From NCBI GenBank assembly GCA_007859835.1, contig SJPJ01000001.1, positions 7,147,400 through 7,211,399 on the forward strand: a stretch of DNA of 64,000 nt, written 5' to 3'. Position numbers and translations under genes: made by a program. Source of the stretch: Novipirellula herctigrandis (lineage in GTDB: Bacteria; Planctomycetota; Planctomycetia; Pirellulales; Pirellulaceae). Under the pieces are notes generated by a model. That model was not told the origin of the DNA. It ran no database searches and worked only from the letters and a program-made list of their open reading frames with translations. Below, piece after piece: positions 4,661-64,000 of this stretch (position 1 is its first letter; the number at the start of each line of letters is the position of its first letter).

Positions 4661-4732
4661 CGTGCCAGCTTGGGTCTACGTGCCAGCTTTGATCTACGTG
4701 CCAGCTTTGATCTACGTGCCAGCTTTGGTCTA
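4661..4732. repeat. Four tandem 18-bp repeats
   Basis: Four adjacent copies of an 18-bp unit (cgtgccagctttgatcta and close variants) at 4661-4678, 4679-4696, 4697-4714 and 4715-4732. Copies 2 and 3 are identical. Copy 4 differs at one base and copy 1 at two. The array fills much of the 197-bp spacer between the divergent lgt-like and 4819 genes. The unit is a multiple of three, which keeps spurious reading frames open through it (KLARRS-type repeats on the minus strand); these are not taken as genes. Confidence 0.95.
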
Positions 4733-4818
4733 GACGCGTCCTTACTCTCTTTTCTACGCTCCACCATGCCGAAACGTCCAGACGTCTTGCACTCCTCGAA
4801 TCGACACGTACCAATCTA

Positions 4819-5583
4819 ATGTTAGCAAAAATCACGTTTCACCGTGTCCCTGCCCTGCACCGTGTCCCTGCCCTGCTTTGTCTGGTGTTGGGCCTGACTT
4901 TGAGCCTGTGTGTGGATGCCGCCGACTTTCGAGTCGAAACGAAGATTTATGAAGGAAAGAGTGAACAACCTGCGGCGGAGCATTTAATCCTGTTCCAGAC
5001 TGGCTTGGTATACGATCTTCCTCAACTCGATGACCGGTATTTGACAGTCTACGACATGGAACGAAAACGGGTTATTTTGCTGGACCAGCAATCCAAAACT
5101 CGCACCACCCTCAGCGTCGATGACTTGGTCCGGATCACGGCCCAGGCCCGCAGTGCAGCGGAAACACGGGATCAACAAACACGTCTGGGCATCTTAGCAG
5201 CACCTGATATCGATCCCGAAACCAATCTGTACCGAATCCAATTCGGCGATACCGAGTATACGACGACCGTCCAAGAGATTGCGGACATCAATCTAGCAAT
5301 TCAGTACGGACAATTCGCTGACTTGGCATCCCGACTCAATTTAGTGCGTCGAATCGGTTTGCCTCCGTTCGCTCGGATGTCACTAAATCAGCGCATTGCT
5401 TCGGATGGGAAGTTACCAAAAGAAACCACCCTGGCAATTCGCCGAGGGATCGCAACGGATCGATTTCGTTCGACTCATGACGTGATTGGACACATCAGTC
5501 AATCGGATCGCAAGCGGATCGAAGAAGCGGGCAGCATGTTGGCGCTCTACCGCGAAATCCCGCTTGGCGAAATGGAGCCGTAG
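4819..5583 (+). CDS. Exported protein of unknown function
   Basis: 254 residues. The N-terminus carries a basic/hydrophobic segment ending near CVDAADF (about residue 34), consistent with a signal peptide, so the protein is probably periplasmic or secreted. The remainder is soluble, with beta-rich phrases such as YLTVYDMERKRVILLD. I do not recognise the family. The signal peptide contains a perfect 18-bp tandem duplication (4840-4875) that gives the peptide repeat HRVPAL-HRVPAL, so its length may vary between strains. The gene is divergent from the lgt-like gene, and no partner is evident downstream. Confidence 0.7.
   Translation: MLAKITFHRVPALHRVPALLCLVLGLTLSLCVDAADFRVETKIYEGKSEQPAAEHLILFQTGLVYDLPQLDDRYLTVYDMERKRVILLDQQSKTRTTLSVDDLVRITAQARSAAETRDQQTRLGILAAPDIDPETNLYRIQFGDTEYTTTVQEIADINLAIQYGQFADLASRLNLVRRIGLPPFARMSLNQRIASDGKLPKETTLAIRRGIATDRFRSTHDVIGHISQSDRKRIEEAGSMLALYREIPLGEMEP
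4840..4875. repeat. 18-bp tandem duplication in a signal-peptide region
   Basis: Two perfect adjacent copies of caccgtgtccctgccctg (4840-4857 and 4858-4875), in frame within the first 20 codons of the gene at 4819. It has the same unit length as the nearby array at 4661 but an unrelated sequence. Confidence 0.95.
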
Positions 5584-6080
5584 TTGAGCACAACGCACAA
5601 CGCTGGACACAATTCACACCGTTGAGCACAATGCCTCATGGTTGTCAGTGCGTTGATTTGCGCCTAGTCCGCTCAGCACGCCGTGAAACTCGAACGTGCC
5701 ATTTCTTTTGTTGCCTTCATGGTGGACAACGCCTATCGTACTTTTGGAAGCCATGATGACTTTGCGTCATCTCACGTGCAACGGACGCACACAACGGTGA
5801 AACAAGGCGTGAAACTTGTTTGCTCGGGTTGACCTTCTCTTTGAGTCAGCCTGCAAGACCGGAACATTTGCGTCGACCCGATTGCCAGCTTACCAGCTGT
5901 TAGGTCTGCGTTGAGTTTTCCAATTTTTCATCGCATCGTTTTTTTGACCAGGCACCATTCGTGACCTATATTCCCGTAGCTGCGTGGTCTGAGCGTCTTT
6001 GCGCAGCTTGAACCAGATGTCACCTCCCTTGGCGTCTGCGGGACCTCCGCCTGACAACGCTCATTACGGATTATCCACGC
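5584..6080. other. Intergenic spacer, about 500 bp
   Basis: No convincing gene. The only clear signal is the promoter-like sequence at 5944-5972 in front of the ctp-like gene. Reading frames here have no family features, and the one at 5999-6202 runs into the ctp gene out of frame. Confidence 0.6.
5944..5972 (+). promoter_or_regulatory. Sigma-70-type promoter for the ctp-like gene
   Basis: TTGACC (5944-5949), a 17-bp spacer, then TATATT (5967-5972). Both hexamers differ from the consensus at one base and the spacing is optimal. Transcription would begin near 5979, giving a leader of about 100 nt before the ATG at 6081. Seen by eye; not tested. Confidence 0.55.
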
Positions 6081-7808: not shown

Positions 7809-7848
7809 CGCGTAGCGGGCCAAAACGTGATTGCTGATACAAATGGCG

Positions 7849-14287: not shown

Positions 14288-14397
14288 GTACACTTTTGCT
14301 TCTTTGGCGAGCCGATCTTTGGGTTGGTAGTTGCCCTTGCATTGGCAATCGGCCTTGCGATGGGTCCGAGCGGGCAAAATGTCACGAATTTCGCATG

Positions 14398-15540
14398 TCA
14401 CGAATTCCGCCCCGCACGGAACTGGTGAAAAACATGGTCGTCACTGAGTTTCGCGAACATCTTGGGTCCGAAAAACGGTGATACCGTCGCCATCAAATTT
14501 GGCTCGCCCGGATCGTACCTCAATTTTGCGTGTCCCGACGTGACTCCGACGGCCACGTAGCGATCCGTTTTCTTGTCTTTGGCTATCCAAGGACATCCAC
14601 TCGCTCCGCCCCCAAAATTGGTCGCGATCACAGGTGAATAGTCATCGTCGCCACCACTGCTTCGGCTGAATAGATACTCGCCGCGAGATCGCCAAAGCTG
14701 TTTGCCAAAATCAAAACCGCTGGTGGCCGGGTAGCCAACAATCGCTACCGCCGTGGTGTTGAAAAAATGGTTATCGGTCAAGGTTTCCAACGGGATCTCC
14801 GCATTTACGATATCACCGATGTTGCGATCGACATAGCAGAATGCGACATCGTTGTTCGTCGTTGGATTCTCGAAATAACCGCGAGGAATATGGCAACTCG
14901 TGATCCGGCACTTGGGACGCTCGGTTACCGAGTAGTAGTCATAGCCGGGATAGAATTCGAGTGAACGCGACCATGTGCGGTCCGTCGTGTCGAACAAATT
15001 ATGTGCACTGGTCACTAGCAAACTCGGACCCGCGATCCAAGCGGACCCCATCGCTGGGTCTCCCCAGGAACTTCGCTGGGTGTAGATGAACAATTTGCCT
15101 ATCGCCCGTAGTTGGCTATTGTCCGAATCGACAACCAATTGAGTGTCGAAGTAGGGAGTCAGCGGAATGCGTCCGAGAGTATCCACATCAGGAAAATTTT
15201 TGGATGGCAACACATTGACGATCGCGCCGTGACTCTGTTTGTAATTTACTGCGGGAGGAATATCACGATGATTCGGACTTGAGAACGAATTCGGACTTGA
15301 GAACGTAGGCCCATCGACGACATTCCCATGCACCTCCGATGGCTGCACGTAGCCGCCGTCCGCTGCGGGGTAAGTTGGTAGCGAAGCTGTTTCCGTAAGT
15401 GGGCTTTCACGGAACAGTCGGTAACCTTTGGGCGTCAAGAAAGGATGGTCGTTGTAGCCCGGATCCGGATTCCCTGAACCATACGAACCGGGATATTGAG
15501 TATAGCGGTCGCGTCGTGGGCGATTGTTGGGTCCAGGCAT
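14398..15540 (-). CDS. V8-like (glutamyl endopeptidase-type) serine protease
   Basis: A chymotrypsin-fold protease with a complete catalytic triad: His180 (VTSAHNLFD), Asp231 (NNDVAFCYV) and Ser314 (GGGASGCPW). The context matches extracellular V8/trypsin-like endopeptidases. The first 130 residues are Pro/Ser/Gly-rich and look disordered, and no hydrophobic signal peptide is visible (the protein begins MPGPNNRPRRDR). It is therefore cytoplasmic, exported by another route, or mis-started. The N-terminal region carries an in-frame 18-bp duplication giving FSSPNS-FSSPNH. Divergent from the glycerophosphodiesterase gene. Confidence 0.85.
   Translation of the reverse strand: MPGPNNRPRRDRYTQYPGSYGSGNPDPGYNDHPFLTPKGYRLFRESPLTETASLPTYPAADGGYVQPSEVHGNVVDGPTFSSPNSFSSPNHRDIPPAVNYKQSHGAIVNVLPSKNFPDVDTLGRIPLTPYFDTQLVVDSDNSQLRAIGKLFIYTQRSSWGDPAMGSAWIAGPSLLVTSAHNLFDTTDRTWSRSLEFYPGYDYYSVTERPKCRITSCHIPRGYFENPTTNNDVAFCYVDRNIGDIVNAEIPLETLTDNHFFNTTAVAIVGYPATSGFDFGKQLWRSRGEYLFSRSSGGDDDYSPVIATNFGGGASGCPWIAKDKKTDRYVAVGVTSGHAKLRYDPGEPNLMATVSPFFGPKMFAKLSDDHVFHQFRAGRNS
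15271..15306. repeat. 18-bp tandem duplication inside the V8-like protease gene
   Basis: attcggacttgagaacga (15271-15288) is repeated at 15289-15306 with one change at the last base. In frame, it lies in the disordered N-terminal region of the protease. Confidence 0.95.
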
Positions 15541-24175: not shown

Positions 24176-25006
24176 ATGCGTCAAAACCCACTGCTTTGTG
24201 CGTCCTGTTTTTTGGCATTGATTCCCCATATATCATGGGGCCAAAACGAAGATCCCTTCGGGCAACCTCCACGGAGCAATGGACAACCTGCGATGCAAGA
24301 TCCGTTTGGTGGTGGAGGTGGTCGCAGTGATGATCCGTTTGGTGGTGGAGGTGGTCGCAGTGATGATCCGTTTGGTGGCCCTGCCGCGCATTCAGATCGA
24401 TCGAGTCGTGATCCATTTGCTCCCGTCATTCCAGCTGCTAGCACCCCCGTCGATCTAACAACGCGTCGCATTTCGACGACTTCCAGGGCAGAGAAAATGC
24501 TCTTGGAAAAATTGGGTGACAAGACTTCGATGACGTTTATCGAGACCCCCTTGGTAGAAGCCGTTCAAGAAATATCTCAGCAACATGGAATCCAGATGTT
24601 TGTGGATCAGCGTAGTTTTGAGGAGATTGGTTTGACTGATGATACGCCTGTCACACTTGACGTTGCGAATGTCTCGTTGCGCAGTTGCCTGAACTTGCTG
24701 CTGCGTGACCTTGATTCGACCTACGTTGTCCGAGACGAAGTGCTATTGATTACCACAATCGAAGCTGCGGAACAAATGCTTGCCTTGCGAACCTATGCGT
24801 TCCCTAAGGCTTTGTCGAGTAAAGCGGACCAAGTCGTCGCGATTATGTTGAAAACCGTGAAGCCCAATGACTGGGACGAACTTGGTGGTTATTGCTCAGC
24901 CGGTGCGGTCGAGAATGTCTTGGTGGTTTCGGCAACCGAAGAAGTTCATGAAGCGGTGATTGAATTCTTGGTAAAACTTGAGGCTGCCTTCAACGCTCGT
25001 CAATAA
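24176..25006 (+). CDS. Exported protein with glycine-rich linker and STN-like domain
   Basis: 276 residues from the ATG at 24176, which has GAAGG 9 bases upstream. A signal peptide (ending near ISWGQNEDPFG) is followed by a low-complexity DPFGGGGGRSD linker made of a 33-bp tandem repeat, then a folded region from about residue 100. In that region, TSMTFIETPLVEAVQEISQQHGIQ (partly) and VTLDVANVSLRSCLNLLLRDL resemble the short secretin/TonB N-terminal (STN) alpha-beta domain found in many planctomycete exported proteins. The end is another small alpha/beta unit. No membrane or catalytic motif is visible, so the function is unknown. Confidence 0.72.
   Translation: MRQNPLLCASCFLALIPHISWGQNEDPFGQPPRSNGQPAMQDPFGGGGGRSDDPFGGGGGRSDDPFGGPAAHSDRSSRDPFAPVIPAASTPVDLTTRRISTTSRAEKMLLEKLGDKTSMTFIETPLVEAVQEISQQHGIQMFVDQRSFEEIGLTDDTPVTLDVANVSLRSCLNLLLRDLDSTYVVRDEVLLITTIEAAEQMLALRTYAFPKALSSKADQVVAIMLKTVKPNDWDELGGYCSAGAVENVLVVSATEEVHEAVIEFLVKLEAAFNARQ
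24299..24378. repeat. 33-bp in-frame tandem repeat (Gly-rich linker)
   Basis: Two identical 33-bp units at 24299-24331 and 24332-24364 plus a partial third (24365-24378). Each encodes DPFGGGGGRSD. Part of the linker of the exported protein at 24176. Confidence 0.95.
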
Positions 25007-36036: not shown

Positions 36037-36069
36037 TGCCTTGAACAGACTCGTGCCTTGAACAGGAAC
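36036..36069. repeat. 17-bp imperfect tandem duplication after a terminator
   Basis: gtgccttgaacagactc (36036-36052) is followed by gtgccttgaacaggaac (36053-36069). The first 13 bases are identical. It abuts the terminator. Confidence 0.8.
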
Positions 36070-36074
36070 GGGCT

Positions 36075-38764: not shown

Positions 38765-39358
38765 ATGCAAGACTTTACAAAACATACCGGTGTCGTCGCT
38801 ACGCTTGACCGCGCCAATGTCGATACGGATCAAATCATCCCAAAGCAATTCTTGAAGCGAATTGAGCGAACGGGTTTTGGTCAATTCCTATTTTTCGATT
38901 GGCGATTCCTCGATGACGGCACGACGCCAAACAGCGATTTTGAGCTGAACCAACCCGCGGTGAAGGACGCGTCGATTCTAATCACGCGTAAAAACTTCGG
39001 CAGTGGCAGTAGTCGCGAGCATGCGGTGTGGGCGCTGGATGATTACGGATTCCGATCGGTGATCGCGCCCTCGTTCGCGGATATCTTTTTCAACAATTGC
39101 TTCAAGAATGGCGTATTGCCGATTGCACTTCCCGAAGCTGACATCGACGAGCTATTCAAGCGAGCGGAAGCCAATTCGCCGTACACGCTAACCGTCGATC
39201 TTGAAAATCAAGTGATTCGTGATGACGCGGGTTTTGAACGCAGTTTCGAAGTGGAATCGAGCCGTCGCCACAACTTGCTCAACGGACTCGATGATATCGG
39301 GTTGACGTTGATGCAAGAAGCCAAAATCACCGAGTACGAAAACGCCCGAACTTGGTAA
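38765..39358 (+). CDS. leuD: 3-isopropylmalate dehydratase, small subunit
   Basis: Swivel subunit that completes the isopropylmalate isomerase with LeuC. 197 residues, the normal length. Typical segments: [21 protein letters not shown], the substrate-binding [15 protein letters not shown], and [21 protein letters not shown]. Same strand and probably same transcript as leuC. The stop codon lies within the first copy of a 17-bp duplication. Confidence 0.97.
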
Positions 39359-39378
39359 TGACCCGAATTTGGTCATGA
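39345..39378. repeat. 17-bp tandem duplication over the leuD stop codon
   Basis: cccgaacttggtaatga (39345-39361) is repeated as cccgaatttggtcatga (39362-39378), 15 of 17 bases identical. The first copy contains the last codons and TAA of leuD. Confidence 0.85.
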
Positions 39379-40759: not shown

Positions 40760-40810
40760 GGATCGGTGGGTGGTTGGTGAATGAAACGTGTCTGGGCCTT
40801 AGCGACGAAT

Positions 40811-40846
40811 ACTTTAGGATAAACCGATACTTTACGATAAACCGAC
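40811..40846. repeat. 18-bp imperfect tandem duplication
   Basis: actttaggataaaccgat (40811-40828) and actttacgataaaccgac (40829-40846), 16 of 18 identical. Confidence 0.85.
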
Positions 40847-41041
40847 GCTCACGTCGGCGGGATCGCCTCATGGCTGGAAACATGCCAAACGCCCCGAGAC
40901 GGAAAAGATTCGCTGATTGGTACATTCCGAGCCCCCTGTGCATTAGAATCCCGCTCTGAGAGCGATGGGAAGTAGACCAATGATCGACGGATCGTTAGCC
41001 TACATATCGAACGAAGTTGTGTATTGACCAATCGTGGCTGC

Positions 41042-41082
41042 GCGGGCAGTGACGGGCTGGGCGGGCAGTGACGGGCTGGGCG
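41042..41082. repeat. 19-bp perfect tandem duplication
   Basis: gcgggcagtgacgggctgg at 41042-41060 and 41061-41079, then gcg. About 60 bp before the MMPL start. Confidence 0.95.
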
Positions 41083-44100: not shown

Positions 44101-44968
44101 ACGCGTACCGGACGTCGAGAATTCGGGCTCGCTACAAGTTGTTTACACGGGCGTCATTCCGGTCGTCTACAAAGCACAGCGGACTTTGCTATTTAGCCTC
44201 GTCGAATCGATTGCGTTGGCGTTTGTATTGATCGCGTGCGTGATGGCGATGCTACTGAACCCCGGTCGTTTTCCGTTAGGTTGGACCGTGCCGAGTAACT
44301 TGGGTTACGGAATCTTAGCTGGTTCGATTGCCATGATCCCCAATGTTTTTCCAGTGCTGTTGGTTTTTGGGGTGATGTGCCACATGGACATCGCGATCGA
44401 TATCGGCACGATGATGACCGCGTCGGTTGCGATGGGAGTCGCCGTGGATGATACGATTCACTTTTTGGCGTGGTTTCGGGTGAACTTGGATGCCGGGATG
44501 AGCCGTGTTGAAGCGGTGATCGAAACCTACCGCCGGGTTGGGCCTGCGATGACCCAAACGACGCTCGTCGGTGGACTTGGGTTGTTTGTCTTTGCGTTAT
44601 CGACGTTCACGCCTACCCAACGGTTTGGAACGCTGATGTTAGTAATGCTGGCGGCGGCCTTGGTCGGTGATTTGATTCTGTTGCCGTCGCTTTTGGCAGG
44701 ACCGCTCGGGCGTTTCTTCAAGCCGCGAGTGCCTGTGGATGGTCCGGTCGTCGAGCCCCGTTTGCCGGACGCTGCTTCGTCCGTGCCGGAATCTGCGGGG
44801 GCCGAATCGGTGGTGCCAGCATCGGCCGCCTCTGATTCCGTCGAGCAGGCAAATGTCGAGCAGGCAAAGGGGGACTCGAAAACGGAGTCGGTTGATGAAG
44901 TTCCATCGTTGAAAGTCCATTTCCCGCCTGGCCGCGTCGATTCTCCTCATCGCGTACCTCGGAAGTAG
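41141..44968 (+). CDS. Large MMPL/RND-superfamily transporter with extra alpha/beta insertion
   Basis: 1275 residues. First helix near residues 17-33, then a periplasmic loop of about 400 residues, helices 2-6 (from about 430; YSLLLGIVLSYICF), a spacer, and a second half with TM7 near 655, a second periplasmic loop and TM8-12 near 1015-1190. ASVAMGVAVDDTIHFLAWF and the following segments are the RND/SSD core of MMPL proteins, which export lipids or hydrophobic molecules. The second loop holds an unusual stretch (about 867-990: RILIVGHSRPESLDTARLL, AVDAVVWLGDELPE) with the look of a Rossmann-like unit. Pro/Ala-rich cytoplasmic tail with a VEQAN/VEQAK duplication. The TTG start is the only reasonable one before the first helix. 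Confidence 0.88.
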   Translation: MTKPPFLERRSPVRVSYALLILMGFFFLIPSIFRAARLSLGEKQNEVKDWLPSDFPETAELEWFGDHFVGESFVLATWEGCTSDDQRLQLLEKKLVHESGNFDPSKTLSPADLDDYGRGKKLGEELGLLSTGRKYNNWGNKQEKWVRAAKGAWYYLTPDGRLYRWEESMTGPASLIRSIKRTLGAYELKGTFVTAFGQARGEDESNPFHNDPSLICAPLFHTVQTGDSIAKELSAEGGPLWPVDLTEDVHRPKVARRRAIERLTGTLFAPAVPHGFAWTAEAFRDAVPEDQRDALPVDFEASVQTKLDELLASKFDGSLEQLKLATSDEQAEVWYAIYDSTKVALPPRLTCVVVTLTDLAQANLPYVLGRGTAGGPRGRLLQLAEESGLYPAPPPSLAPPPFNRQVADSMPGMPSLHLGGPPVDNLAIDEEGTVTLIRLLGYSLLLGIVLSYICFTSVRITVMVFVVGGSAAMVSMAFVWWTGGKVDAILMSMPSLVYVLGLSGAIHVVNYYRDEVRSSGESGAAGRAIRHAFLPCTLASLTTAIGLVSLFTSNLAPISNFGLYAAIGVMATLGILFSYLPAALQTFPPLVDAEGADDVPESVDTEKRGIASAEKGNVAAKANVAAINSPRNESRIAEAWASVGRWITSHHALVACTCLLVLFLSASGLRHIRTSVQLLKLFDPQSRIIRDYAWLEDHFGKLVPMEMIVRVPALPDGAKVGGNPPDPQSLTMLERAEVVSRITTVVRRTLGETGTGVIGQAISADTFLPPMPEPSNSYNVVRSKFNRELTKSRTDLLDSDYVRIEKRGPFAGSELWRISLRVGALSDVDYGHFIKTLRVAVEPVIRAYDTREALLGALTHDEQGNPIALSGKDRILIVGHSRPESLDTARLLEADHETIDVKGVFLSTLEELLAGERIRRPVWIDPAAEGSSLEIGSEKWNQAIAAVDAVVWLGDELPEQADIQSAKRWIDATAILEKPVAPVLAEGRVPDVENSGSLQVVYTGVIPVVYKAQRTLLFSLVESIALAFVLIACVMAMLLNPGRFPLGWTVPSNLGYGILAGSIAMIPNVFPVLLVFGVMCHMDIAIDIGTMMTASVAMGVAVDDTIHFLAWFRVNLDAGMSRVEAVIETYRRVGPAMTQTTLVGGLGLFVFALSTFTPTQRFGTLMLVMLAAALVGDLILLPSLLAGPLGRFFKPRVPVDGPVVEPRLPDAASSVPESAGAESVVPASAASDSVEQANVEQAKGDSKTESVDEVPSLKVHFPPGRVDSPHRVPRK
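44840..44869. repeat. 15-bp in-frame tandem duplication in the MMPL tail
   Basis: gtcgagcaggcaaat (44840-44854) and gtcgagcaggcaaag (44855-44869), coding VEQAN-VEQAK in the disordered C-terminal tail. Confidence 0.92.
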
Positions 44969-49511: not shown

Positions 49512-49709
49512 ATGTCCGCGATTCCACCAGCAGTGTCTAGCGTCCTCAATGCTCGCGCTGACGCGACCAACCAGAAAGTTCAGATTGAATTGCTTTCGAA
49601 GCAATTGGACGCACAAAAACAGACTGGCGATGCCATCAATAATTTGCTTGAGCAGGCGAAGCAGGTTCAAGCACAGATCCAAGACGGGCATATTGACGTC
49701 CGAATCTGA
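49512..49709 (+). CDS. Small YjfB-like protein
   Basis: 65 residues, no hydrophobic segment, predicted helical throughout. The pattern (short N-terminus, helix, then LLSKQLDAQKQTGDAINNLLEQA) resembles the YjfB 'putative motility protein' family, small proteins of about 60 residues with a KxxDxQxxxGxxxxxLL core. ATG start. A 17-bp duplication array begins at its stop codon. The function of the family is unknown; no flagellar gene is nearby. Moderate confidence that it is real, lower for the family. Confidence 0.55.
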   Translation: MSAIPPAVSSVLNARADATNQKVQIELLSKQLDAQKQTGDAINNLLEQAKQVQAQIQDGHIDVRI

Positions 49710-49751
49710 GCGCAGGCCGAATCGGAGCGCAGGCCGAATCGGAGCGCAGGC
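49708..49751. repeat. 17-bp tandem array at a stop codon (2.6 copies)
   Basis: gagcgcaggccgaatcg at 49708-49724 and 49725-49741, with a third partial copy to 49751. The first copy overlaps the TGA of the YjfB-like gene, and the last abuts the stop of the convergent gene at 49751. Confidence 0.93.
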
Positions 49752-50367: not shown

Positions 50368-53300
50368 TTGAACGTCTCCAAACCGCAAATTGTAGGGGTC
50401 GCTTGCCTAGCTGCCTTGCTCTTATTGTCTACTCCAACGACTGCCCAGGAGACGGTGGAGCCTTCGGAAACTGCGGAAACGGCTGCGGCGACGAAACCAG
50501 TAGCGATTGGGCCGCTTGATCCGCAGATCGCCGAAGCTTCCGACGAGGCCGTTGGTGCGATGAAAGGGATTTTCCTTGCGGAAAATTGGGACATCGACTT
50601 GTTCGCCGCCGAGCCGGATGTCGCCAATATTGTTTCCTTCGACATTGACGCTCGTGGCCGCTTGTTTGTGTGCGAATCCTTTCGCCAGGATCGCGGTGTT
50701 AGCGACAATCGAAGTCACGACGAAACCTGGTTGCTGGCTGATCTTGCCTCGAAAACCGTCCAAGACCGAATTGACTACCATCGCAAATTGTTAGGCGATG
50801 CCGCAGTCACTTACACCCAACATGACGATCGCATCCGCCGGCTTGTCGATACCGACCACGATGGCAAAGCCGATCAAAGCGTCGTTCTTGCCAGCGGTTT
50901 TCATCGCTTGGAGGAGGGAACCGGAGCGGGAGTTCTCGTTCGCGGCAATCACATCTATTACACCTGTATCCCGCGACTATGGAATTTAATTGACAAAGAC
51001 GACGATGGCGTTGCAGATGATCGCGTTGTGTTGTCCGATGGATATGGCGTTCGCGTCGCGTTTCGTGGGCACGATTTGCACGGCTTGGTGATCGGACCCG
51101 ACGGACGACTTTACTTTTCAGTTGGCGATCGTGGATACCATGTCACCACCAAGGAAAACGAAGTCTTGGCCAATCCAGCGACTGGGGCCGTTTTTCGATG
51201 TGAACTCGACGGTAGCGGTTTAGAAGTCTACTGCACCGGCCTGAGGAACCCACAGGAATTGGCATTTAACGATCTTGGGGATTGGTTCACGGTCGACAAC
51301 AATAGTGATAGTGGGGATAAGGCTCGCATCGTCCAATTGCTCCATCACGGTGATTCGGGATGGCGAATGTACTATCAATACTTGTCCGACCGCGGGTCAT
51401 TCAACGAAGACCGTTTATGGGAACCGGTACACTCGGAACAGCCGTCGTACATTGTCCCTCCGGTCGCCAACTTCACCGACGGACCCTCTGGATTGGCATT
51501 CTACCCAGGAACGGGTTTTGGGGATGCACTGAAGGACCATTTTTTGATCTGTGATTTCCGCGGAACGGCAAATCAAAGCGGTGTGCGGTCGTTTCAACTT
51601 GATCCTCAAGGTGCATTCTACAAACTTGGTCATTCTGACCAGCCAATCTGGTCCGTTCTCGCAACCGATGTTGCCTTTGGTCCCGATGGTGCGATCTATA
51701 TCAGCGATTGGGTCGACGGATGGAAGGGAGTTGGCAAGGGACGCATCTATCGTGTCACCGATTCGCAACAAACCGAATCCGATATTGTCGGTCAAGTTGC
51801 AACGCGGCTCGCCAGAGATTGGTCTTCTCTGCGATCGGAGGATTTGGTCGAGAGTTTATCTCATGTCGATCGTCGCATTCGGCTCGAAGCCCAATGGGAA
51901 CTTGCCGCCCGAAGCGATACGGATTCCTTTCTTGGAGTCGCCGTGAACGCCGAGGCATTGCCACTGGCCCGCCGGCACGCGATCTGGGGCGTGGACATGA
52001 TCGCGCGGTTGGATTCGTCAAAAACGCCAACCGTGCTCGACGCGCTGCGCCCCTTGACATCGGACCCGGACTCTGCGGTTCGAGCCGAAGTCGCCAAAGT
52101 GCTTGGCCAACGCGGCGACACTGCGGCGCAGTCGCAATTGATTCAATTGCTAGCTGATAAGTCGCCTCGCGTGCGATATGCGGCCGCGATGGCATTGTCG
52201 GTCCAAAAAGCATCGCAGGCGTTTGTCCCCGTCCTTCAAATGATCGCGGAAAACGGAACGGCCGCCGCGCCCATTGATCCCGCAATTCGCCACGCCGGGC
52301 AAACGTATTTGGCGAACGCCATTCCAGTGGAGATGCTTTCAAAGCTAAAGAATCACGACAGTGAATTGGTAAGGCAAAGTGCCGTTGTGGCTTTGCGGCG
52401 AATCAAGAGTGGTGAAGTGACCGCGTTTCTTAATGATAAAAGCTCATTGGTGATGGGTGAAGCAGTAAGGGCGATTCATGACGAACCCATTCCGCAATCC
52501 TTAGAAGCGTTAGCGGCGCTGGTCGAGTCACCGCTCGCGAACGTACCGATTTTGCGACGAGTGATCGCAGCGAATTTTCGGATTGGTACACTCGCCTCGG
52601 CGACCGCATTGGCGAAGTTTGCGGCACGCAATTCGTCACCTGATGCGATGCGCGTCGAAACGCTTGATTGCTTGGCCAATTGGGATAGTCTTGATCCCCG
52701 CGATCGAGTGCTCGGGGATCTGCGCCCTGCGGTAAAACGCGAAATCGAGGACGCCGTTTCTGCAATTTCACCGGAAGTCGATTCGCTACTGGCATCAAGT
52801 GAAACCGTTCGTGAAAAAACAATCGAAGTTGCTGCAAAGCTTGGTATCAAGCAAATCGCACCGTCGCTGGCATCGCGAACCAATGACGCCAACCATAGTT
52901 TTCGCGTTCGCGCGAATGCTCTCATGGGTTTGTCAAAACTCGATACGCCCAAAGCAATCGCCCTTGCCCGAGAGGTTCGTTTGGCGCCCGCGAATGCATT
53001 GGTGGAAGCGTCGTTGAAAGTATTAGCAGAACACGATCGAGCGGGTTCGATCGACCGATTTGTGGAAGCGACCACGAGTCGACGCTTGGCTGTGCGTCAA
53101 TTAGCGTGGGATATCTTGGCAAAATGTGGTAACGAACAGGCAACAGAAACGATCAGCCAAGCTGTTCGGCAATACATCGATGGGACACTTGATGGGGACG
53201 TTCAACTGAATGTGCTGGAAGCCGCCGAAGGTCGAATTCCAGACTCACTTCAAGAAGAACTTCATGAGCATCAGCTAGCGTTAGCCGAAACCAATCCGCT

Positions 53301-53775
53301 TGCTCCTTGGCTCGTTGCGCTCGAAGGCGGTGATTCAAAGAAAGGACGTAGTTTGTTCTTTGACCGAACCGAATTGTCGTGCGTTCGTTGTCACAAAGTC
53401 GACCAAAACGGTGGCGAAGTAGGACCAGACTTAACCGTAATCGGAAAACAAAAAGAGCGAGTTTATTTGCTCGAAAGTATCTGTATCCCAGATTCGAGTA
53501 TCGCCGACGGCTTTGGTTCGATGGTCATCGCGAACGACGCCGGTCAATTATTGACCGGCGTCGTTAAATCGGAAAACGACGAATTGCTTGAGTTGATTCA
53601 AGCGGATGGATCGATCGTACGAATTCCCCAGGACGAAATTGTTACCTCCCGAAAAGGCAAATCGGCCATGCCTGCCGATTTGCTTCAGCATCTCTCGGAA
53701 CGTGAACTACGAGATCTGGTTGCCTATTTGGCAAGTCTGCGAGAAGCAGCCGAGCCAACGGCTAAAGTCCAATAA
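50368..53775 (+). CDS. Secreted beta-propeller/HEAT/heme-binding CxxCH protein
   Basis: 1135 residues of the Pirellula/Verrucomicrobium-type architecture. Signal peptide (about 1-27, ending TPTTAQE), a sugar-dehydrogenase-like propeller (about 50-480; FDIDARGRLFVCESFRQD, GPDGRLYFSVGDRG, LRNPQELAFN, FGPDGAIYISDW), a HEAT-type helical solenoid (about 490-970; AVRAEVAKVLGQRGD), and a cytochrome c domain with CVRCH (Cys1005, Cys1008, His1009). The C-terminal region keeps GPDLTVIGK and a distal Met (SAMPADLL, near 1097). It probably oxidises a periplasmic substrate and passes electrons to its heme. TTG start; the signal peptide follows directly, so this start is favoured. Confidence 0.93.
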   Translation: MNVSKPQIVGVACLAALLLLSTPTTAQETVEPSETAETAAATKPVAIGPLDPQIAEASDEAVGAMKGIFLAENWDIDLFAAEPDVANIVSFDIDARGRLFVCESFRQDRGVSDNRSHDETWLLADLASKTVQDRIDYHRKLLGDAAVTYTQHDDRIRRLVDTDHDGKADQSVVLASGFHRLEEGTGAGVLVRGNHIYYTCIPRLWNLIDKDDDGVADDRVVLSDGYGVRVAFRGHDLHGLVIGPDGRLYFSVGDRGYHVTTKENEVLANPATGAVFRCELDGSGLEVYCTGLRNPQELAFNDLGDWFTVDNNSDSGDKARIVQLLHHGDSGWRMYYQYLSDRGSFNEDRLWEPVHSEQPSYIVPPVANFTDGPSGLAFYPGTGFGDALKDHFLICDFRGTANQSGVRSFQLDPQGAFYKLGHSDQPIWSVLATDVAFGPDGAIYISDWVDGWKGVGKGRIYRVTDSQQTESDIVGQVATRLARDWSSLRSEDLVESLSHVDRRIRLEAQWELAARSDTDSFLGVAVNAEALPLARRHAIWGVDMIARLDSSKTPTVLDALRPLTSDPDSAVRAEVAKVLGQRGDTAAQSQLIQLLADKSPRVRYAAAMALSVQKASQAFVPVLQMIAENGTAAAPIDPAIRHAGQTYLANAIPVEMLSKLKNHDSELVRQSAVVALRRIKSGEVTAFLNDKSSLVMGEAVRAIHDEPIPQSLEALAALVESPLANVPILRRVIAANFRIGTLASATALAKFAARNSSPDAMRVETLDCLANWDSLDPRDRVLGDLRPAVKREIEDAVSAISPEVDSLLASSETVREKTIEVAAKLGIKQIAPSLASRTNDANHSFRVRANALMGLSKLDTPKAIALAREVRLAPANALVEASLKVLAEHDRAGSIDRFVEATTSRRLAVRQLAWDILAKCGNEQATETISQAVRQYIDGTLDGDVQLNVLEAAEGRIPDSLQEELHEHQLALAETNPLAPWLVALEGGDSKKGRSLFFDRTELSCVRCHKVDQNGGEVGPDLTVIGKQKERVYLLESICIPDSSIADGFGSMVIANDAGQLLTGVVKSENDELLELIQADGSIVRIPQDEIVTSRKGKSAMPADLLQHLSERELRDLVAYLASLREAAEPTAKVQ

Positions 53776-53811: not shown

Positions 53812-53849
53812 GCGTCTTCGATTGACAATTGCGTCTTCGATTGACGATC
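53812..53849. repeat. 19-bp imperfect tandem duplication
   Basis: gcgtcttcgattgacaatt (53812-53830) and gcgtcttcgattgacgatc (53831-53849), 17 of 19 identical. In the spacer between two convergent genes. Confidence 0.88.
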
Positions 53850-53983
53850 GGGGCGAGTCATTTCCTGAAAGGATTTGCCTAGGAGATTTTTATTTGTTTC
53901 GTAGGGCAAGTGAAACCAAACGCCATGTTCTGGCTCGTTTCACTTCACGCCGCCTACTGGGGGGCCTGCATCCTCAAGCGGCT

Positions 53984-55024: not shown

Positions 55025-55048
55025 GACGACTCTGCTTCCTATAAAAGA

Positions 55049-57255: not shown

Positions 57256-58049
57256 CTAGCGCATTCTAGGTAGACGTATTCAAACCAAACGCCCAAGCCG
57301 AATCTTGGGGCGTGATTGGGGGGCCAGGCGTCGGTCGATCCTACACCCACGTGTCGAGAGCCCGTCATGCTCGGGCGGCCACAGCCGGATACGAATGTTC
57401 TGGTTTGGGGGACTGCACTGTTCGGGCCTGTTTCATACGGGCCTGTTTCATACGGGCCTGTTTCATACGGGCCTGTTTCATACGGGCCTGTTTCATACGG
57501 GCAAACAGCATTGGGTGATTTTTGCATGTTCCTTTTTTAGGTAACACGAATCAATCCCTCTTCTTTCCGTGCGTGGACTTCTGCGACTCCGCACGCTGGC
57601 TCATCCCGATTCCCACGTTGGGCACGAAAGTCGATTCAAGCGAGTTACAACACTCCTCGGATGATAAAGACGGACGCGGGCATGCGCTCATTCGAGCGAA
57701 AAAAAGGACTACGTTATTCCGCAAACACGGGGCATTGCCAATTTGTGGGCTCTCGTCTCGCCTATTTGAAAAAAACAATCACAGTTGACCCATCTTCGCT
57801 AACCTCGTAACTTGCCCTCATGGAAGCATTTAGGTCGCCATTTTTGGGGCTGTTGCGAGAACCTGTGTGGTCTCAAGACTGTCCATGGCCCCCAATTTGC
57901 CCTGATTGTCGCCGGACGAGCGTCATTGTGCCAATTTGACGCTTCCGCTAACGACTTACAATCGCGCGATTCTGAGCAGGAATCGCCGTAATTTGGCGTT
58001 TTGCCAATCGAATTACGAATAATTTTTACGACACAACGACGATTCAAAC
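57256..58049. other. Large intergenic region before secA, about 790 bp
   Basis: The longest spacer in the window. It contains an imperfect inverted repeat (acgcccaag 57289-57297 / cttggggcgt 57304-57313) without a T tract, and the 15-bp tandem array at 57423-57502. I find no protein-like reading frame. A TTGACG/TACAAT pair in front of secA has only 15 bp between the hexamers and is not called. Might hold a leader or small RNA for secA; not shown. Confidence 0.5.
57423..57502. repeat. Five perfect 15-bp tandem repeats
   Basis: cgggcctgtttcata at 57423-57437, 57438-57452, 57453-57467, 57468-57482 and 57483-57497, then cgggc. All five copies are identical, so the array is young or kept identical. 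It keeps all frames open on both strands in a period of five codons, creating false ORFs. Confidence 0.97.
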
Positions 58050-61000
58050 ATGTCTTTTTTCGAACGCCTTTTCGATATTCTCGGTGTTATTTTCGGTGGC
58101 TTCTTTGGAGGCGTTGAGCGAACGATTACATCGATTTTCGGCTCCGCCAATGCCCGTCAAGTGGCAAAGTTGCAGGTCCGGGCTGAGCGAATCGGAGAGT
58201 TGGAGCCCAAGTATGAGGCAATGTCCGACGAGGAACTCCGTGAACAGACAGAGATTTTTCGCCAGCGTCTGCGCGATGGCGAGACGCTCGATGACATCCT
58301 CGACGAAGCGTTCGCGGTTTGTCGCGAAGGCGGAAAACGGTTTCTTAACATGCGGCATTACGACGTTCAATTCGTCGGCGGGATGGTGCTCCACAGTGGT
58401 GGCATTGCCGAAATGGTGACCGGGGAAGGTAAGACTCTTGTGGCGACTTTGCCAGCGTACTTAAACGCGATCGAAGGCAAGGGAGTTCATGTGGTGACCG
58501 TCAATGACTATTTGGCTCGACGTGACATGGAGTGGATGGCGCCGCTCTATATGAATTTGGGGCTCACGGTCAACGCCATCCAATCGGGTATGTCCACGAG
58601 TGATAAGCAAGCTGCCTATGCGTGTGACATCACCTATGGAACGAACAATGAATTTGGTTTTGACTATTTGCGTGACAACATGCGTCCGGCAGCCAAGGGT
58701 GACGACCGTTACCCGGCTGAAGCACAGCAGTGCCAGGGCCCCTTGAACTTTGCGATCATTGACGAAGTGGACAACATTCTTGTCGACGAAGCGAGGACTC
58801 CGTTGATCATCAGCGGCCCGGCGGATTTGGATCTTGGACGCTACGCCGAAGCAGATCGGGTGGCTCGTCAATTGCAGAAGGAAGTTCACTTCACCGTCGA
58901 CGAAAAACAGCACAACGTCACGCTCAATGACGAAGGGGTTCGCGAAGCCGAAAAGTTGGCTGGCGTCGAGAGTTTCTACACAGCGGGTAACATGGAATGG
59001 CCGCACTTGATCGATAATTCGCTCAAGGCACATTTTCTTTACAAGCTTGATGTGAATTACGTGATCAAGGATCGCCAAATCATCATCGTCGACGAGTTTA
59101 CGGGACGGTTGATGGAAGGACGCCAATGGAGTGACGGATTGCACCAAGCAGTCGAAGCGAAAGAGGGCGTTCCGATCAAGCAGGAAACTCAGACTTTTGC
59201 GACAGCATCGCTGCAGAATATCTTCAAGATGTACAAGAAATTGTCGGGGATGACCGGTACCGCGATGACCGAGGCGACCGAGTTCATGAAAATTTACGGT
59301 CTCGATGTGGTTGCGATACCGACCAACCGCGAGATGAAACGAATCGAGCATCCCGATCTGATTTACTTGACCGAAAAGGACAAATACAAAGCGTTGGCCG
59401 AAGAAGTGGAACGAACGACCAAATGGGACGTCTTGACACTGAAAGATGGCAATGAAATTTGGGGCAAGATTCAAAGTGACGACGATTCGGAAATCACCAT
59501 CGTTGCCAAAGATGAAAAGCGTGCTGAGAAGGTTGATCGATCGAAAGTGACTCGCGTTGAACGGGCGGGGCGACCCATTTTGATTGGTACCGTCAGCATT
59601 GAAAAGAGCGAACGATTGTCCTCGCTTTTGGAACGACGAGGCATCAAACATGATGTGTTGAATGCGAAGAATCACGGTCGTGAGGCGGAGATTGTCGCTC
59701 AAGCAGGTCGAGTCAACTCCGTGACCATTGCAACGAATATGGCCGGTCGTGGTACTGACATTGTGCTCGGTGGGAATCCCGAAACCATGGCATGGGCTCA
59801 AATGCAACACAAATATCCGACTCGTTTGGAAGTCCCCGATGATGAATGGAACACGCTTGTCAAAGAGATCGATGATCGTGAAAAAATGAGCGAGGAAGGC
59901 GACCAGGTTCGCGACCTCGGCGGTCTGTATGTGATTGGAACCGAGCGGCACGAATCGCGACGGATCGATTTGCAGCTTCGAGGTCGTTGCGGTCGTCAAG
60001 GCGACCCCGGTTCAAGCCGTTTTTTCTTGTCGCTTGAAGACGATTTGATGCGGATTTTTGCCGGTGACTTCGTCAAGAGCATGATGGAGCGATTGGGAAT
60101 GCAAGAGGGTGAGGCGATCGAATCGTCACTTGTGACACGGCGAATTGCCGCGGCACAAAAGAAGGTCGAAGAACGCAACTACGAAATTCGGAAGAGTTTG
60201 CTCGATTACGACGAAGTGATGGACGAGCAACGCAAACGCGTTTACCGTTATCGCCAAAACTTGCTCGATGGCCACAGTTCGCGAAACATGATCTTGGAAT
60301 TGATCCGTGCTCAAATCGACAAGTATGTTGGAACTTTTTTGGCTCCATATTATGGAGTAGAGTCGTTTGCTGCCTACGCGGGTGGCCAATTGGATTGCCA
60401 ATTAGATCCCCGCGATTTTGTAAACATGGACTTTGAAATGGCCAAGTCGTATTCGGTCGATCAGGCCGAGCGTGCTGCCGAAACGACCGTAAGCGAGATT
60501 GTTGAAGAAAACTTGCCAGCGGAAATGGAAGACGAATGGAATTGGAAGGCGCTGACGAATTGGTCCAACACGCGATTGGGGACGAACTTCCAAGAGCACC
60601 AGCTCAAAAGCTTGAACCGTGACGAGTTGGTTGACGAGTTGACGATCAAGTCGCACGAGCGCATCGGGAAGGTCGATCTTACCGAAGGCGAACCGCTATT
60701 GGATGCGGATTTTGGGCTTCGAACATTGTGTAGTTGGATGCGACATAAGTTTGGTATCGAAATCACTCCCGATGAGTTCCGTGATGTGGACGACGTTCGG
60801 GCGGTGGCCAAGTCGCTAGTCGAAAAAGCGGAGCATGCCTACTCGGCCAAAGAAGCGGAATACCCAGTAATCGCTGGTATTTCACGTTTCACCGAGAAAC
60901 AAGGGGCACAAGTTGCCTTGGACCGTGAAGGTTTGGTTGCTTGGGTCCAAAGCCGTTTCGGCGTCGAACTTGGACTTGACGATGTGAGGCTAAACCGTGA

Positions 61001-61766
61001 CGACTTGAAAACTCAGTTGGTTGAATATAGTCGTAAGACGGCGGACGCGGCGGAATTGAAATATGGTGTCGCAGCGGAGAAAATGGACGCCATCTTTGAG
61101 GATGCGGACAAGGGCACGACGGCTGCCGTCGCGGCTGGAAAAGAAGGGACACTCGAAGCGTTGATCAAGTGGCTCGAGAATGAGATAAACCACACGGCCG
61201 ACGCTACCGACATGGGCCGGATGACTCGCAGCGAGATGACGTTGGCCGTCGAGGGCGCCGTGGATGACCGCTTCTATCCTGAGATGCGACGAATGGAACG
61301 TCAAATTTTGCTTAGCATTGTCGACGAAGCATGGAAGAATCACTTGTTGACGATGGACCATTTGCGAAGCAGCGTGGGCTTGAAGGGTTACGCCCAAATG
61401 GACCCGAAAGTTGAATACAAACGCGAAGGGATGCGGTTGTTCGATTCAATGTGGGAATCGATTGGTGAACGAGTGACCGATTTGATTTTCCGTATGGAGT
61501 CGTTCAACCAAGAGTTCATCCGCAGCACTTGGGTCGAAGCAAAAGCGACTCACAATGACCCCCAATCGGCCGGTGGTGGTGTTGCAACGATGCAAACCGA
61601 TACTCCCAACCAACGAGCGGCTGAGATGAGCAACCGTGGTGAAGAAGCGAAGCCCGATCCGATTCGCCATGATGAACCACGAATTGGTCGAAACGATCCA
61701 TGTCCATGTGGAAGTGGAAAGAAATACAAGGCATGCTGCATGCGAAAACGAGGGCATGTAGCTTAG
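58050..61766 (+). CDS. secA: Preprotein translocase ATPase SecA, extended form
   Basis: Motor of the general secretion pathway. Walker A TGEGKT (124-129), DEVD box (238-241), the preprotein-binding region, [13 protein letters not shown] motor motifs, and the zinc-binding C-terminus [13 protein letters not shown] (Cys1218, 1220, 1229, 1230). 1238 residues against about 900 in E. coli. The excess lies in two places. One is a beta-rich insertion at about 455-506 between ALAEEVERT and [10 protein letters not shown], with phrases [15 protein letters not shown] and [10 protein letters not shown]. The other is the helical scaffold region (about 830-1060), where a WxxxxFGxxL-type helical module appears to be repeated. 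Start codon supported by the family's N-terminus; no clear Shine-Dalgarno. Confidence 0.96.
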
Positions 61767-61881: not shown

Positions 61882-63210
61882 ATGTTCGCCAATTTGATCT
61901 ACTTTGTCGCATTGCTACTGGTGTCGCCCGTGGTTGTGTATCGCATGTTGCGGCATGGTCGTTATCGTCGCGGTGCAAACGAAAAACTCTTCGGTCTTTC
62001 AAAGGCAGCCGCTCATGCGTTGACTGGTGGGAAACCATGTATTTGGATTCACGCGGTAAGCGTTGGCGAAGTCAACTTGGTTCGCGTGCTCGCCGATCGA
62101 CTTCAAAAGCGACACCCCAATAGTCGGGTTATCGTCAGTTCTTCGACTGACACGGGATACGACTTGGCGGTCAAACTGTTTGGTGCCAAGCGTGTTTTCT
62201 TTTGTCCCCTCGACTTCTCGTGGGCTGTGCGACGGGCAATCGAGAATTTGAACCCGTCGATCTTGCTGCTGGCCGAGTTGGAACTTTGGCCCAACCTGAT
62301 TCGCATCGCTACCGAACGGGAATGTCCTGTGATGGTGTTCAATGCACGGCTAAGCGAAAAGAGCGCCAAACAATACGACCGATTCGGTTTGTTTACTCGC
62401 CGTACGTTCGCGCGGATCGCATGGGCCGGTTGCCAGAACGAACAGAATGCTCAGCGGTTTCTACGTTGTGGAACTTTGTCGGAACGGATCGATGTGACGG
62501 GGTCTATCAAGTTTGACGACGCGCCGTCAACGCGTGAAACGATCGAAGTCCAATCACGAATGCATTGGGCGGGCGTCGATCCTTGGCATCGAGTTTGGAT
62601 GGTGGGCAGTACTCAACCGGGCGAAGAAGAAATGGCGATCGAAATTTACAAGAGGCTTCGAAGGTCTCACAAAGAGCTTCGGTTGATTTTGGTTCCGCGA
62701 CATGTGGAACGTTTCGATGCGGTTGCTGGGTTAGTGAATCGCGCAGGACTAAAAGTTCATCGGCGTAGTATCGATTCTTCACTCGACCAACAAACTTGGA
62801 GCAGTGACACGGTGATCTTGGTCGATACGATCGGTGAGCTACGACATTGGTGGGGTGTCTGTCAGATCGCGACGGTCGGTGGTAGTTTTGGTGACCGAGG
62901 TGGACAGAATATGCTCGAGCCAGCGGGTTACGGGTGTGCAGTTTCATTTGGGCCAGACACACGCAATTTCAAAGAGATCGCCGACCAATTGATTCTTGAA
63001 GGTGGCGCTTTGCGTGTGATGGATTCATCGGAACTGCAGGCGTTTGTGCTGCGATGCTTAGATGACATTCCAATTTCGGATGAGTTAGGCCGAATCGCGC
63101 GCCGCGTGATCCGACAACATCAAGGTGCGACTAATCGCACCATCGAAGCGATTGAGTCGAAGATGGTGTCGAGGGTCGCTGGAGTTCCTGCGAAGGCAAA
63201 ATGCGGCTGA
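61882..63210 (+). CDS. waaA: 3-deoxy-D-manno-octulosonic acid transferase
   Basis: Adds Kdo to lipid A at the cytoplasmic face of the inner membrane. 442 residues: N-terminal helix (5-22), then RRGANEKLFG with the catalytic Glu34, the GT-B N-lobe (IHAVSVGEVNL, SSSTDTGYDLA, LAELELWPNLI), and the C-lobe with VGSTQPGEEEMAIEIYKR and VGGSFGDRGGQNMLEPAGYG, the donor-binding motif. ATG start. 115 bp after secA; an imperfect hairpin at 61777-61802 in the gap has no T run. Its presence indicates that this organism makes Kdo-containing lipopolysaccharide. Confidence 0.96.
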   Translation: MFANLIYFVALLLVSPVVVYRMLRHGRYRRGANEKLFGLSKAAAHALTGGKPCIWIHAVSVGEVNLVRVLADRLQKRHPNSRVIVSSSTDTGYDLAVKLFGAKRVFFCPLDFSWAVRRAIENLNPSILLLAELELWPNLIRIATERECPVMVFNARLSEKSAKQYDRFGLFTRRTFARIAWAGCQNEQNAQRFLRCGTLSERIDVTGSIKFDDAPSTRETIEVQSRMHWAGVDPWHRVWMVGSTQPGEEEMAIEIYKRLRRSHKELRLILVPRHVERFDAVAGLVNRAGLKVHRRSIDSSLDQQTWSSDTVILVDTIGELRHWWGVCQIATVGGSFGDRGGQNMLEPAGYGCAVSFGPDTRNFKEIADQLILEGGALRVMDSSELQAFVLRCLDDIPISDELGRIARRVIRQHQGATNRTIEAIESKMVSRVAGVPAKAKCG

Positions 63211-63298
63211 CAACGCCGGCCCCGCTTGCGTTTGTGATGCTAAACTATTTTGTGAACCTGCGGCCTACGCTAAAAGCGGAACTGTAGCGTCAGCATGA

Positions 63299-63559
63299 CT
63301 AATGGTTGCAAATATTTTCAGGTAGCGTCGTGAATCCGTCTCCGGAATCAACAAACTTGCCTCGCTCCGCCAAAAACGAGATCAAATCTTCCGCTGTCAT
63401 TTCGGATGCGGAGCACGTATGAAAGCGAGCATCTTCGCCGTATTTTTCGACAATCTCTGTTCGTAATGAGTCGCGAGTGTACGGCTTGCCCGCTGCGACC
63501 ATCATGTGCATTATCTCGTGGCCGTGGACGGAGTTGGGGTTTTGAATCGAATCGCTCAT
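63299..63559 (-). CDS. YecH-family small metal-binding protein
   Basis: 86 residues of the DUF2492/YecH family. Signature residues: VHGHEIMHMM at the N-terminus, ARFHTCSASEMTAEDLISFL in the middle (His and Cys probably bind metal), and ENICNH at the C-terminus. Length normal. The function is unknown; the family is recognised by its His/Cys pattern. It stands alone and converges with the Kdo transferase gene. Confidence 0.9.
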   Translation of the reverse strand: MSDSIQNPNSVHGHEIMHMMVAAGKPYTRDSLRTEIVEKYGEDARFHTCSASEMTAEDLISFLAERGKFVDSGDGFTTLPENICNH

Positions 63560-64000
63560 CGAGTGACGTTTCCTAAAGGGTGATTAGTGATAACCGTTAT
63601 CCAATATCGGCTGCTATGCTTCATCGCACCTGCGACCTAAGCGATAGCTGCGAAGGGCGTAAACGGCGACCATTCGGCGACCATTCGGCGAATCTTAAAT
63701 CGCCACATGAAGGTATGGATTAGTAGCATCATTCGCTTTCATCACTGTTTTGGCAACCCGTCGGCGTCTCGGTCGTTGAAAATTGGCAACGATATGCGTG
63801 TCAGCCGAATCCGTGAGCGTCAAAGACAGCCGATTCGTTGGGTGCACGCGGGATGCGAATGCCACCAAATGTTGATCGTAACGGTCCCGATATTTGCGGT
63901 GATGCTCAGGATGGTGCTCAAAACATGCCGCGGTACAGGTAAGCATCGCACCGGAATATATCAGTCAACAACGATTCTCTCGTAAATTCGTCCACTGCCT
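63560..64000. other. End of window without a supported gene
   Basis: Holds the 11-bp duplication at 63665-63692. Overlapping frames on both strands at about 63700-63985 code peptides without family similarity. I do not call either; one might be the end of a gene beyond the window. Confidence 0.5.
63665..63692. repeat. 11-bp tandem duplication
   Basis: cggcgaccatt at 63665-63675 and 63676-63686, then cggcga. Confidence 0.9.

What the first reader, a model, noticed from the sequence alone, without database searches (positions are those of the whole stretch)
4661..63692. Scattered short tandem duplications, mostly 15-19 bp units, as a genome-wide signature
At least 13 unrelated loci in 64 kb carry two to five adjacent copies of a short unit: 4661 (18 bp x4), 4840 (18), 15271 (18), 24299 (33), 36036 (17), 39345 (17), 40811 (18), 41042 (19), 44840 (15), 49708 (17), 53812 (19), 57423 (15 x5), 63665 (11). 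The units share no sequence, so this is not a repeat family but a process that duplicates segments of nearly constant length, with perfect to decayed copies. Most are in spacers or disordered coding segments. A fill-in repair of staggered breaks or a specific slippage mechanism would explain a preferred length.
Basis: partly seen in the sequence, partly recalled or inferred. Interest (0 to 1): 0.72.

Follow-up and report, generated by a model that had tools for sequence, protein, structure and literature searches.

The report
Clade-biased 15-21 bp tandem duplications
This bacterium and many of its close relatives carry an unusual number of short stretches of DNA copied side by side, mostly 12 to 21 letters long, probably because DNA copying slips between tiny repeats at a preferred distance; the slip itself is familiar, the preferred length and the uneven spread between sister groups are not.

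Summary
All 13 listed duplications exist (11 of 13 listed by TRF). In 1.264 Mb of the same genome (Pirellulaceae; 9.5 Mb) there are 139 tandem duplications with 13-24 bp units, 99 of them 15-19 bp; shuffles give almost none from 14 bp up. In spacers lengths form a hump at 15-17 bp. Inside genes 39 of 41 are multiples of three, so selection removes frameshifts and assembly error is unlikely. Units are essentially unrelated.

Density differs between clades: 147/Mb in 20 loci of close relatives, 0 in 118 kb of their sister Rhodopirellula group, 34/Mb in other Pirellulaceae, 0-29/Mb in small samples of unrelated bacteria. Duplicated segments are bounded by short direct repeats: 33 of 53 exact two-copy arrays have 3 or more extra matching bases, 3.4 expected. 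With no Ku match, this argues against fill-in of staggered breaks and for microhomology-primed strand misalignment. What sets the length is unexplained; PolA type, MutS, RecJ and SbcD do not explain the clade difference. New variant of a known kind; strain comparison was not possible.

The parts
4661..4732 (.). 18-bp unit, 4.0 copies, spacer
   Evidence: TRF 94%; 18/18; spacer
4840..4876 (.). 18-bp unit, 2.1 copies, start of ORF 4819-5583 (+), length keeps the frame
   Evidence: TRF 100%
14379..14410 (.). 16-bp unit, 2.0 copies, across the end of ORF 14398-15540 (-)
   Evidence: TRF 93%
15271..15305 (.). 18-bp unit, 1.9 copies, inside ORF 14398-15540 (-), length keeps the frame
   Evidence: TRF; 17/18
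24299..24378 (.). 33-bp unit, 2.4 exact copies, inside ORF 24176-25006 (+), length keeps the frame
   Evidence: TRF 100%; 33/33
36037..36070 (.). 17-bp period, 14/17, directly after a hairpin and T run
   Evidence: not listed by TRF
39345..39378 (.). 17-bp unit, 2.0 copies, 15/17
   Evidence: TRF 88%
40809..40845 (.). 18-bp unit, 2.1 copies, spacer
   Evidence: TRF 94%; 17/18
41036..41082 (.). 19-bp unit, 2.5 copies, spacer
   Evidence: TRF 96%; 19/19
44840..44868 (.). 15-bp unit, 1.9 copies, near the end of ORF 41177-44968 (+), length keeps the frame
   Evidence: TRF 100%; 14/15
49700..49751 (.). 17-bp unit, 3.1 copies, spacer
   Evidence: TRF 97%; 17/17
53813..53850 (.). 19-bp period, 17/19, after ORF 50425-53775
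   Evidence: not listed by TRF
57423..57502 (.). 15-bp unit, 5.3 exact copies, spacer upstream of secA (58050)
   Evidence: TRF 100%
63664..63691 (.). 11-bp unit, 2.5 exact copies, spacer
   Evidence: TRF 100%

Best explanation
These are products of microhomology-primed strand misalignment during DNA synthesis. A strand end or displaced flap pairs with a direct repeat of a few bases lying about 15-21 nt away, synthesis or ligation fixes the loop, and the segment is doubled; later slippage within the pair gives three or more copies. The clade containing this genome does it, or keeps the products, more often than its neighbours, with a preferred loop length. Shown: excess over shuffles, length hump, microhomology at the ends, removal of frameshifts in genes, density differences between clades. 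Inferred: that it happens during synthesis. Speculative: that the length comes from how far a polymerase displaces the downstream strand before the flap is cut or ligated (flap-ligation model), rather than from 3' end slippage.
For: Own genome, exact arrays of about two copies with 13-25 bp units: 33 of 53 have 3 or more extra matching bases, against 3.4 for in-silico duplications at random places; in the 3-8 base band alone 23 of 53 against 3.3. Relatives (L031-L130): 28 of 57 against 3.6. Short direct repeats are about equally common at every spacing apart from the codon period, so the preferred length is not a matter of available microhomology. Exact arrays in spacers: 2-3 per length at 8-11 bp, 13/10/11 at 15/16/17, none at 22-23. 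No clear end motif; hairpin energy differs from shuffles by -0.24 +/- 0.21 kcal/mol, n = 94. By array extent 55 of 139 arrays reach 3 or more copies. Coding units of 13-24 bp are multiples of 3 in 39 of 41, spacer units in 34 of 84.
Against: 9 of 53 own arrays and 17 of 57 in relatives show no extra matching bases, so some may arise without microhomology. Simple slippage predicts falling frequency with length, not a hump. Extensions of 9 or more bases may be worn third copies rather than microhomology. No strain pair was available to see an event; the homologue comparison was possible for 5 of 46 coding arrays and clean in none. No gene tested tracks the trait.
Confidence: 0.62

Rival explanations
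1. Same misalignment, but the 15-21 bp hump is a survivor window: small loops are removed by mismatch repair, and longer duplications are lost quickly by slippage or RecA recombination.
For: Sharp loss above 21 bp. Mismatch repair efficiency drops as the loop grows beyond 1-3 nt (PMC4060949, passages seen). MutS1 matches the family over nearly its whole length in 17 of 17 genomes searched.
Against: Bacterial mismatch repair is not known to clear 8-12 nt loops (recalled), yet these lengths are scarce. MutS1 is present in duplication-rich and duplication-poor genomes alike, so its presence does not explain the clade difference.
Confidence: 0.25
2. Fill-in and ligation of breaks with 15-19 nt staggered ends.
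For: Gives adjacent copies of a length set by the overhang; 9 of 53 own arrays have no extra matching bases.
Against: Microhomology in most arrays; no Ku match in G000 and in 57 of 60 family genomes; lengths spread over 12-21 bp; no clear end motif.
Confidence: 0.07
3. Footprints of transposons that left with both target-site copies in place.
For: Would also leave two adjacent copies without a shared sequence.
Against: Target duplications have about one length per element family (recalled), here 12-21 bp; microhomology at ends; 55 of 139 arrays with 3 or more copies. Flanking elements were not searched for.
Confidence: 0.03
4. Selection for protein repeats or spacer elements, without any special mutation process.
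For: Some coding arrays form low-complexity peptide repeats.
Against: Density is higher in spacers (201/Mb) than genes (35/Mb) for 15-19 bp units, and the hump is seen in spacers without codon constraint.
Confidence: 0.04

Closest known systems
Microhomology-mediated tandem duplications and slipped-strand mispairing (recalled, apart from passages of PMC2374710 on flies and primates and PMC4060949 on prokaryotes)
   Same: Adjacent exact copies, short direct repeats at the ends, no shared motif, further copy-number growth
   Different: Here a length hump at 15-17 bp rather than a steady fall, and a density that jumps between sister clades
Short duplications flanked by direct repeats in flap-processing mutants (yeast rad27, E. 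coli polA; recalled, searches did not bring up these papers)
   Same: Product anatomy: segment doubled between short direct repeats
   Different: PolA here matches 5'-nuclease, 3'-5' exonuclease and polymerase models, and PolA type does not track the trait across the family
Bacterial VNTRs / prokaryotic satellites (PMC6749651, passages seen)
   Same: Arrays of short units scattered in the chromosome; as I read its table, that survey counts 29 satellites in Rhodopirellula baltica
   Different: Mostly two-copy arrays with a narrow unit-length range; the passages seen do not report a preferred length in planctomycetes

Membership tests
Microhomology-mediated tandem duplication / slippage | Short direct repeat at both ends of the duplicated segment | tested here: met
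   33 of 53 with 3 or more extra bases against 3.4; relatives 28 of 57 against 3.6
Microhomology-mediated tandem duplication / slippage | Units unrelated to each other, no end motif | tested here: met
   5 of 9591 unit pairs share an 11-mer, 0-3 in five random draws; end composition near background, first base slightly G/C-richer
Microhomology-mediated tandem duplication / slippage | Second copy is an insertion absent from relatives | tested here: inconclusive
   5 of 46 coding arrays had spanning homologues; two arrays of one protein face a G001 homologue without the extra copies, but within gaps larger than the unit; the window array at 44840 shows no clear gap
Microhomology-mediated tandem duplication / slippage | RecA-independent, arises during DNA synthesis | not testable with these tools
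   Needs experiment
Ku-dependent end joining with fill-in | Ku present | tested here: not met
   0 matches in G000; 3 of 60 family genomes match, 1 over the cut-off
Ku-dependent end joining with fill-in | Segment ends without microhomology beyond chance | tested here: not met
Transposon target-site duplication | One fixed length | tested here: not met
   Spacer units spread over 12-21 bp
Dispersed repeat family (REP/MITE-like) | Shared sequence | tested here: not met
   5 of 9591 pairs share an 11-mer

The most novel reading that the evidence does not exclude
A clade of Pirellulaceae (the window genome with Rubripirellula and Stieleria relatives) runs a length-tuned duplicator: an altered replication or repair step that misaligns by a preferred 15-18 nt and continuously seeds new tandem repeats in spacers and new 5-6 residue repeats in proteins, a trait missing from the sister Rhodopirellula sensu stricto group.
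Probability: 0.25. Interest if true: 0.7.

Novelty: new variant of a known kind. Interest (0 to 1): 0.5.

Why it matters
It is a genome-wide mutation signature with a defined length and sharp differences between sister clades (about 147/Mb against 0 in 118 kb), so the responsible gene could be mapped by comparison. If it is mutational, it would show that a bacterial replication or repair step can have a characteristic slip length, and it would be a steady source of variable repeats and short protein insertions in large planctomycete genomes.

Tried and rejected
Rejected: chance (shuffles); repeat family; codon constraint as the source of the hump, since it is seen in spacers; hairpins; a clear end motif (the first base is slightly G/C-richer and units have GC 0.57 against 0.53 in flanks); more microhomology at 15-18 nt spacing; assembly error (39 of 41 coding arrays keep frame; the peak recurs in other isolates and MAGs).

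PolA as the cause: own-type PolA (63% identity or more) occurs in 16 of 60 family genomes, own one included. Of the 80 named loci, 69 were classified (31 own-type, 38 other; a few on partial matches, and L076 has both an own-type and a partial other-type match); 10 were not given to and L061 had no match. Duplications with 13-24 bp units: inside the 30-locus Rhodopirellula group 147/Mb (own-type, 20 loci) against 21/Mb (other, 10 loci), but outside it 14/Mb (own-type, 11 loci) against 52/Mb (other, 28 loci). So type alone does not set the rate. In 17 genomes (8 taken as rich, 9 as poor): MutS1 over the cut-off in 17 of 17, RecJ in 17 of 17, SbcD in 1 of 17, a poor one: none separates rich from poor. 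Open-frame coverage is 0.92-0.97 in rich and poor groups (crude measure).

Weak points and results against: crude gene caller; one locus of 5-24 kb per named relative; unrelated controls small (E. coli 100 kb, S. meliloti 200 kb, R. etli 50 kb, R. jostii 450 kb, D. radiodurans 50 kb) and, E. coli apart, plasmids. R. jostii has 13 arrays with 13-24 bp units in 450 kb (29/Mb), close to the 34/Mb of other Pirellulaceae, so moderate densities are not special; its counts fall after 12 bp with no hump at 15, on few events. Four further 20-kb samples of family genomes (L254 and L255 own-type PolA, L256 and L257 other-type) held no unit of 12 bp or more. G091, same family, has no 15-19 bp unit in 80 kb. 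G001 has 35/Mb of 15-19 bp units against 95/Mb in G002, so even the genus varies. The 1.264 Mb figure (78/Mb for 15-19 bp) is lower than the first 464 kb suggested (95/Mb).
Full report
What was checked. TRF on the window lists 37 rows, among them 11 of the 13 listed places; the other two, 36036 and 53812, are real but imperfect (14/17 and 17/19). With a detector that asks for 90% identity over a full unit, the window has 9 duplications with 15-19 bp units and one of 33 bp; the mean over 30 dinucleotide-preserving shuffles was 0.0 in that range.

Genome-wide. The window lies in a 9.5 Mb genome; its SecA is nearest to that of Rhodopirellula maiorica SM1 at 85% identity, so it belongs to the Pirellulaceae. 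In 1.264 Mb of it I count 139 duplications with 13-24 bp units (110/Mb), 99 of them 15-19 bp (78/Mb); the shuffle mean is 1.7 at 13 bp, 0.3 at 14 bp and 0.0 above. All thirteen blocks carry them, at 50 to 180 per Mb. By array extent 84 of the 139 have two copies and 55 three or more.

Length. By a home-made gene caller (710 genes, 80% coding), spacer units of 12 to 21 bp number 8, 5, 9, 15, 12, 12, 8, 4, 8, 8; none at 22-23; 3 at 24. Exact arrays in spacers give the same picture: 3, 2, 3, 3 at 8-11 bp (4.8, 0.8, 0.2, 0.0 expected), 5, 4, 5 at 12-14, 13, 10, 11 at 15-17, then 6, 4, 4, 6 at 18-21, and none at 22-23. In genes 39 of 41 units of 13-24 bp are multiples of three, mostly 15 and 18; in spacers 34 of 84 are; 14 more lie across gene ends. 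Density of 15-19 bp units is 35/Mb in genes and 201/Mb in spacers. So the process makes all lengths around 15-18 and selection removes frameshifts; an assembly artefact would not respect the reading frame. Lowering the identity threshold reveals further decayed pairs over shuffles, for example 106 against 13 at 15 bp and 80%.

Ends. In exact arrays of about two copies, the match runs past the unit. For 53 own arrays, 33 extend by 3 bases or more, where in-silico duplication of random segments predicts 3.4; 9 have no extension, 29.3 predicted. In relatives (L031-L130) 28 of 57, 3.6 predicted; 17 without extension, 31.3 predicted. Arrays with mismatches and the 42 of 95 exact own arrays that run to more copies were left out of this count. 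Long extensions may be worn third copies, but the 3-8 base band alone is 23 against 3.3. Direct repeats of 5 bases or more are about equally common at all spacings apart from the codon period, so a preference for 15-18 comes from the process or from survival. I saw no clear motif at the ends (the first base is slightly G/C-richer) and no excess of hairpins.

Who has it. The first 464 kb of the own genome gave 95/Mb for 15-19 bp units, G002 (same genus) 95, G001 (same genus) 35. Eighty named SecA loci were fetched; 30 of them form the Rhodopirellula group with 60 duplications of 13-24 bp in 611 kb (98/Mb), the other 50 have 31 in 914 kb (34/Mb). Inside the group there is strong structure: 20 loci with the own PolA type hold 55 in 374 kb (147/Mb), while the five loci that I call Rhodopirellula sensu stricto (R. 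solitaria, R. rubra, R. sallentina, Neorhodopirellula pilleata, Aporhodopirellula aestuarii) hold 0 in 118 kb (binomial p = 5.5e-7, which ignores relatedness and the choice of groups after seeing the tree). The other Pirellulaceae also peak at 15 bp (15 of 27 units of 14-19 bp). The Mariniblastus group has 1 in about 154 kb, 8 loci. Outside or at the edge: G091 of the same family 0 units of 15-19 bp in 80 kb, same order 0 in 80 kb, same class 2 in 240 kb, rest of the phylum 3 in 400 kb. Unrelated bacteria: E. coli 0 in 100 kb, S. meliloti 1 in 200 kb, R. etli 0 in 50 kb, D. radiodurans 0 in 50 kb, R. jostii 5 in 450 kb without a hump.

Insertion in time. No strain pair is held. Of 46 coding arrays, 5 had homologues that span the site in the fetched relatives. 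In one protein, two arrays (a four-fold PNYTNA and a doubled PHIATN) face a G001 homologue without the extra copies, but the gaps (35 and 11 residues) are larger than the units added; at the window array 44840 the homologues show no clear gap; the other two are too divergent to say. This test is inconclusive.

Mechanism. Microhomology, unrelated units, no clear end motif and no Ku match point to strand misalignment during DNA synthesis rather than to joining of filled-in staggered ends. Ordinary 3' end slippage predicts a fall with length; the hump needs something more. Two readings remain: a characteristic loop, for instance a displaced flap whose 5' end re-pairs at the downstream repeat and is ligated (speculative), or a survivor window between loop repair and loss of longer repeats. 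Known flap-processing mutants of yeast and E. coli make similar duplications (recalled; searches did not bring them up). PolA here matches all its domain models.

Search for a cause. The genus carries a PolA only about 40% identical to that of most of the family. Within the Rhodopirellula group PolA type and duplication density go together, but own-type PolA genomes outside it, such as Mariniblastus, are poor in duplications, so PolA type is not the cause by itself. MutS1, RecJ and SbcD do not separate rich from poor genomes.

Literature. Ten searches of the held library. None returned a report of a preferred tandem-duplication length in planctomycetes (for planctomycetes; for mechanism). I saw passages of PMC6749651, PMC4060949 and PMC2374710, and only listings of the others. 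Subscription papers are mostly missing, so absence from print is not established.

Verdict. A real mutational signature of a known kind, strongest in one clade, with an unusual length preference.

Noticed in passing
L216:1498-4293 (-), G000 contig C2: PolA of this clade is about 40% identical to that of most Pirellulaceae and 63-84% identical to a scattered set of family members including Mariniblastus, which suggests horizontal replacement (no PolA tree was built).
   Followed up: partly
L020:5426-7165 (-): A second, 579-aa protein that matches only the family A polymerase domain (PF00476), near an ORF that looks like a phage-type integrase (the integrase label is by eye).
   Followed up: no
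window 57423-57502: Five exact copies of a 15-bp unit in the long spacer upstream of secA, a good candidate for a strain-variable repeat.
   Followed up: no
window 36001-36035: A hairpin followed by a T run, a likely intrinsic terminator by eye, directly before the 17-bp duplication.
   Followed up: no
window 58050-61766: SecA of 1238 aa; the SecA model matches in three separate stretches, which may mean large inserts.
   Followed up: no
G000, G002, G177-G184, G186-G188, G193, G194, G237, G246: SbcD was found over the family cut-off in only 1 of these 17 genomes (G246); 13 others had weaker matches and 3 none.
   Followed up: no
own genome sample, 1.264 Mb: No unit of 22 or 23 bp among arrays of 90% identity or more, although 20 and 21 bp are well represented.
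   Followed up: no
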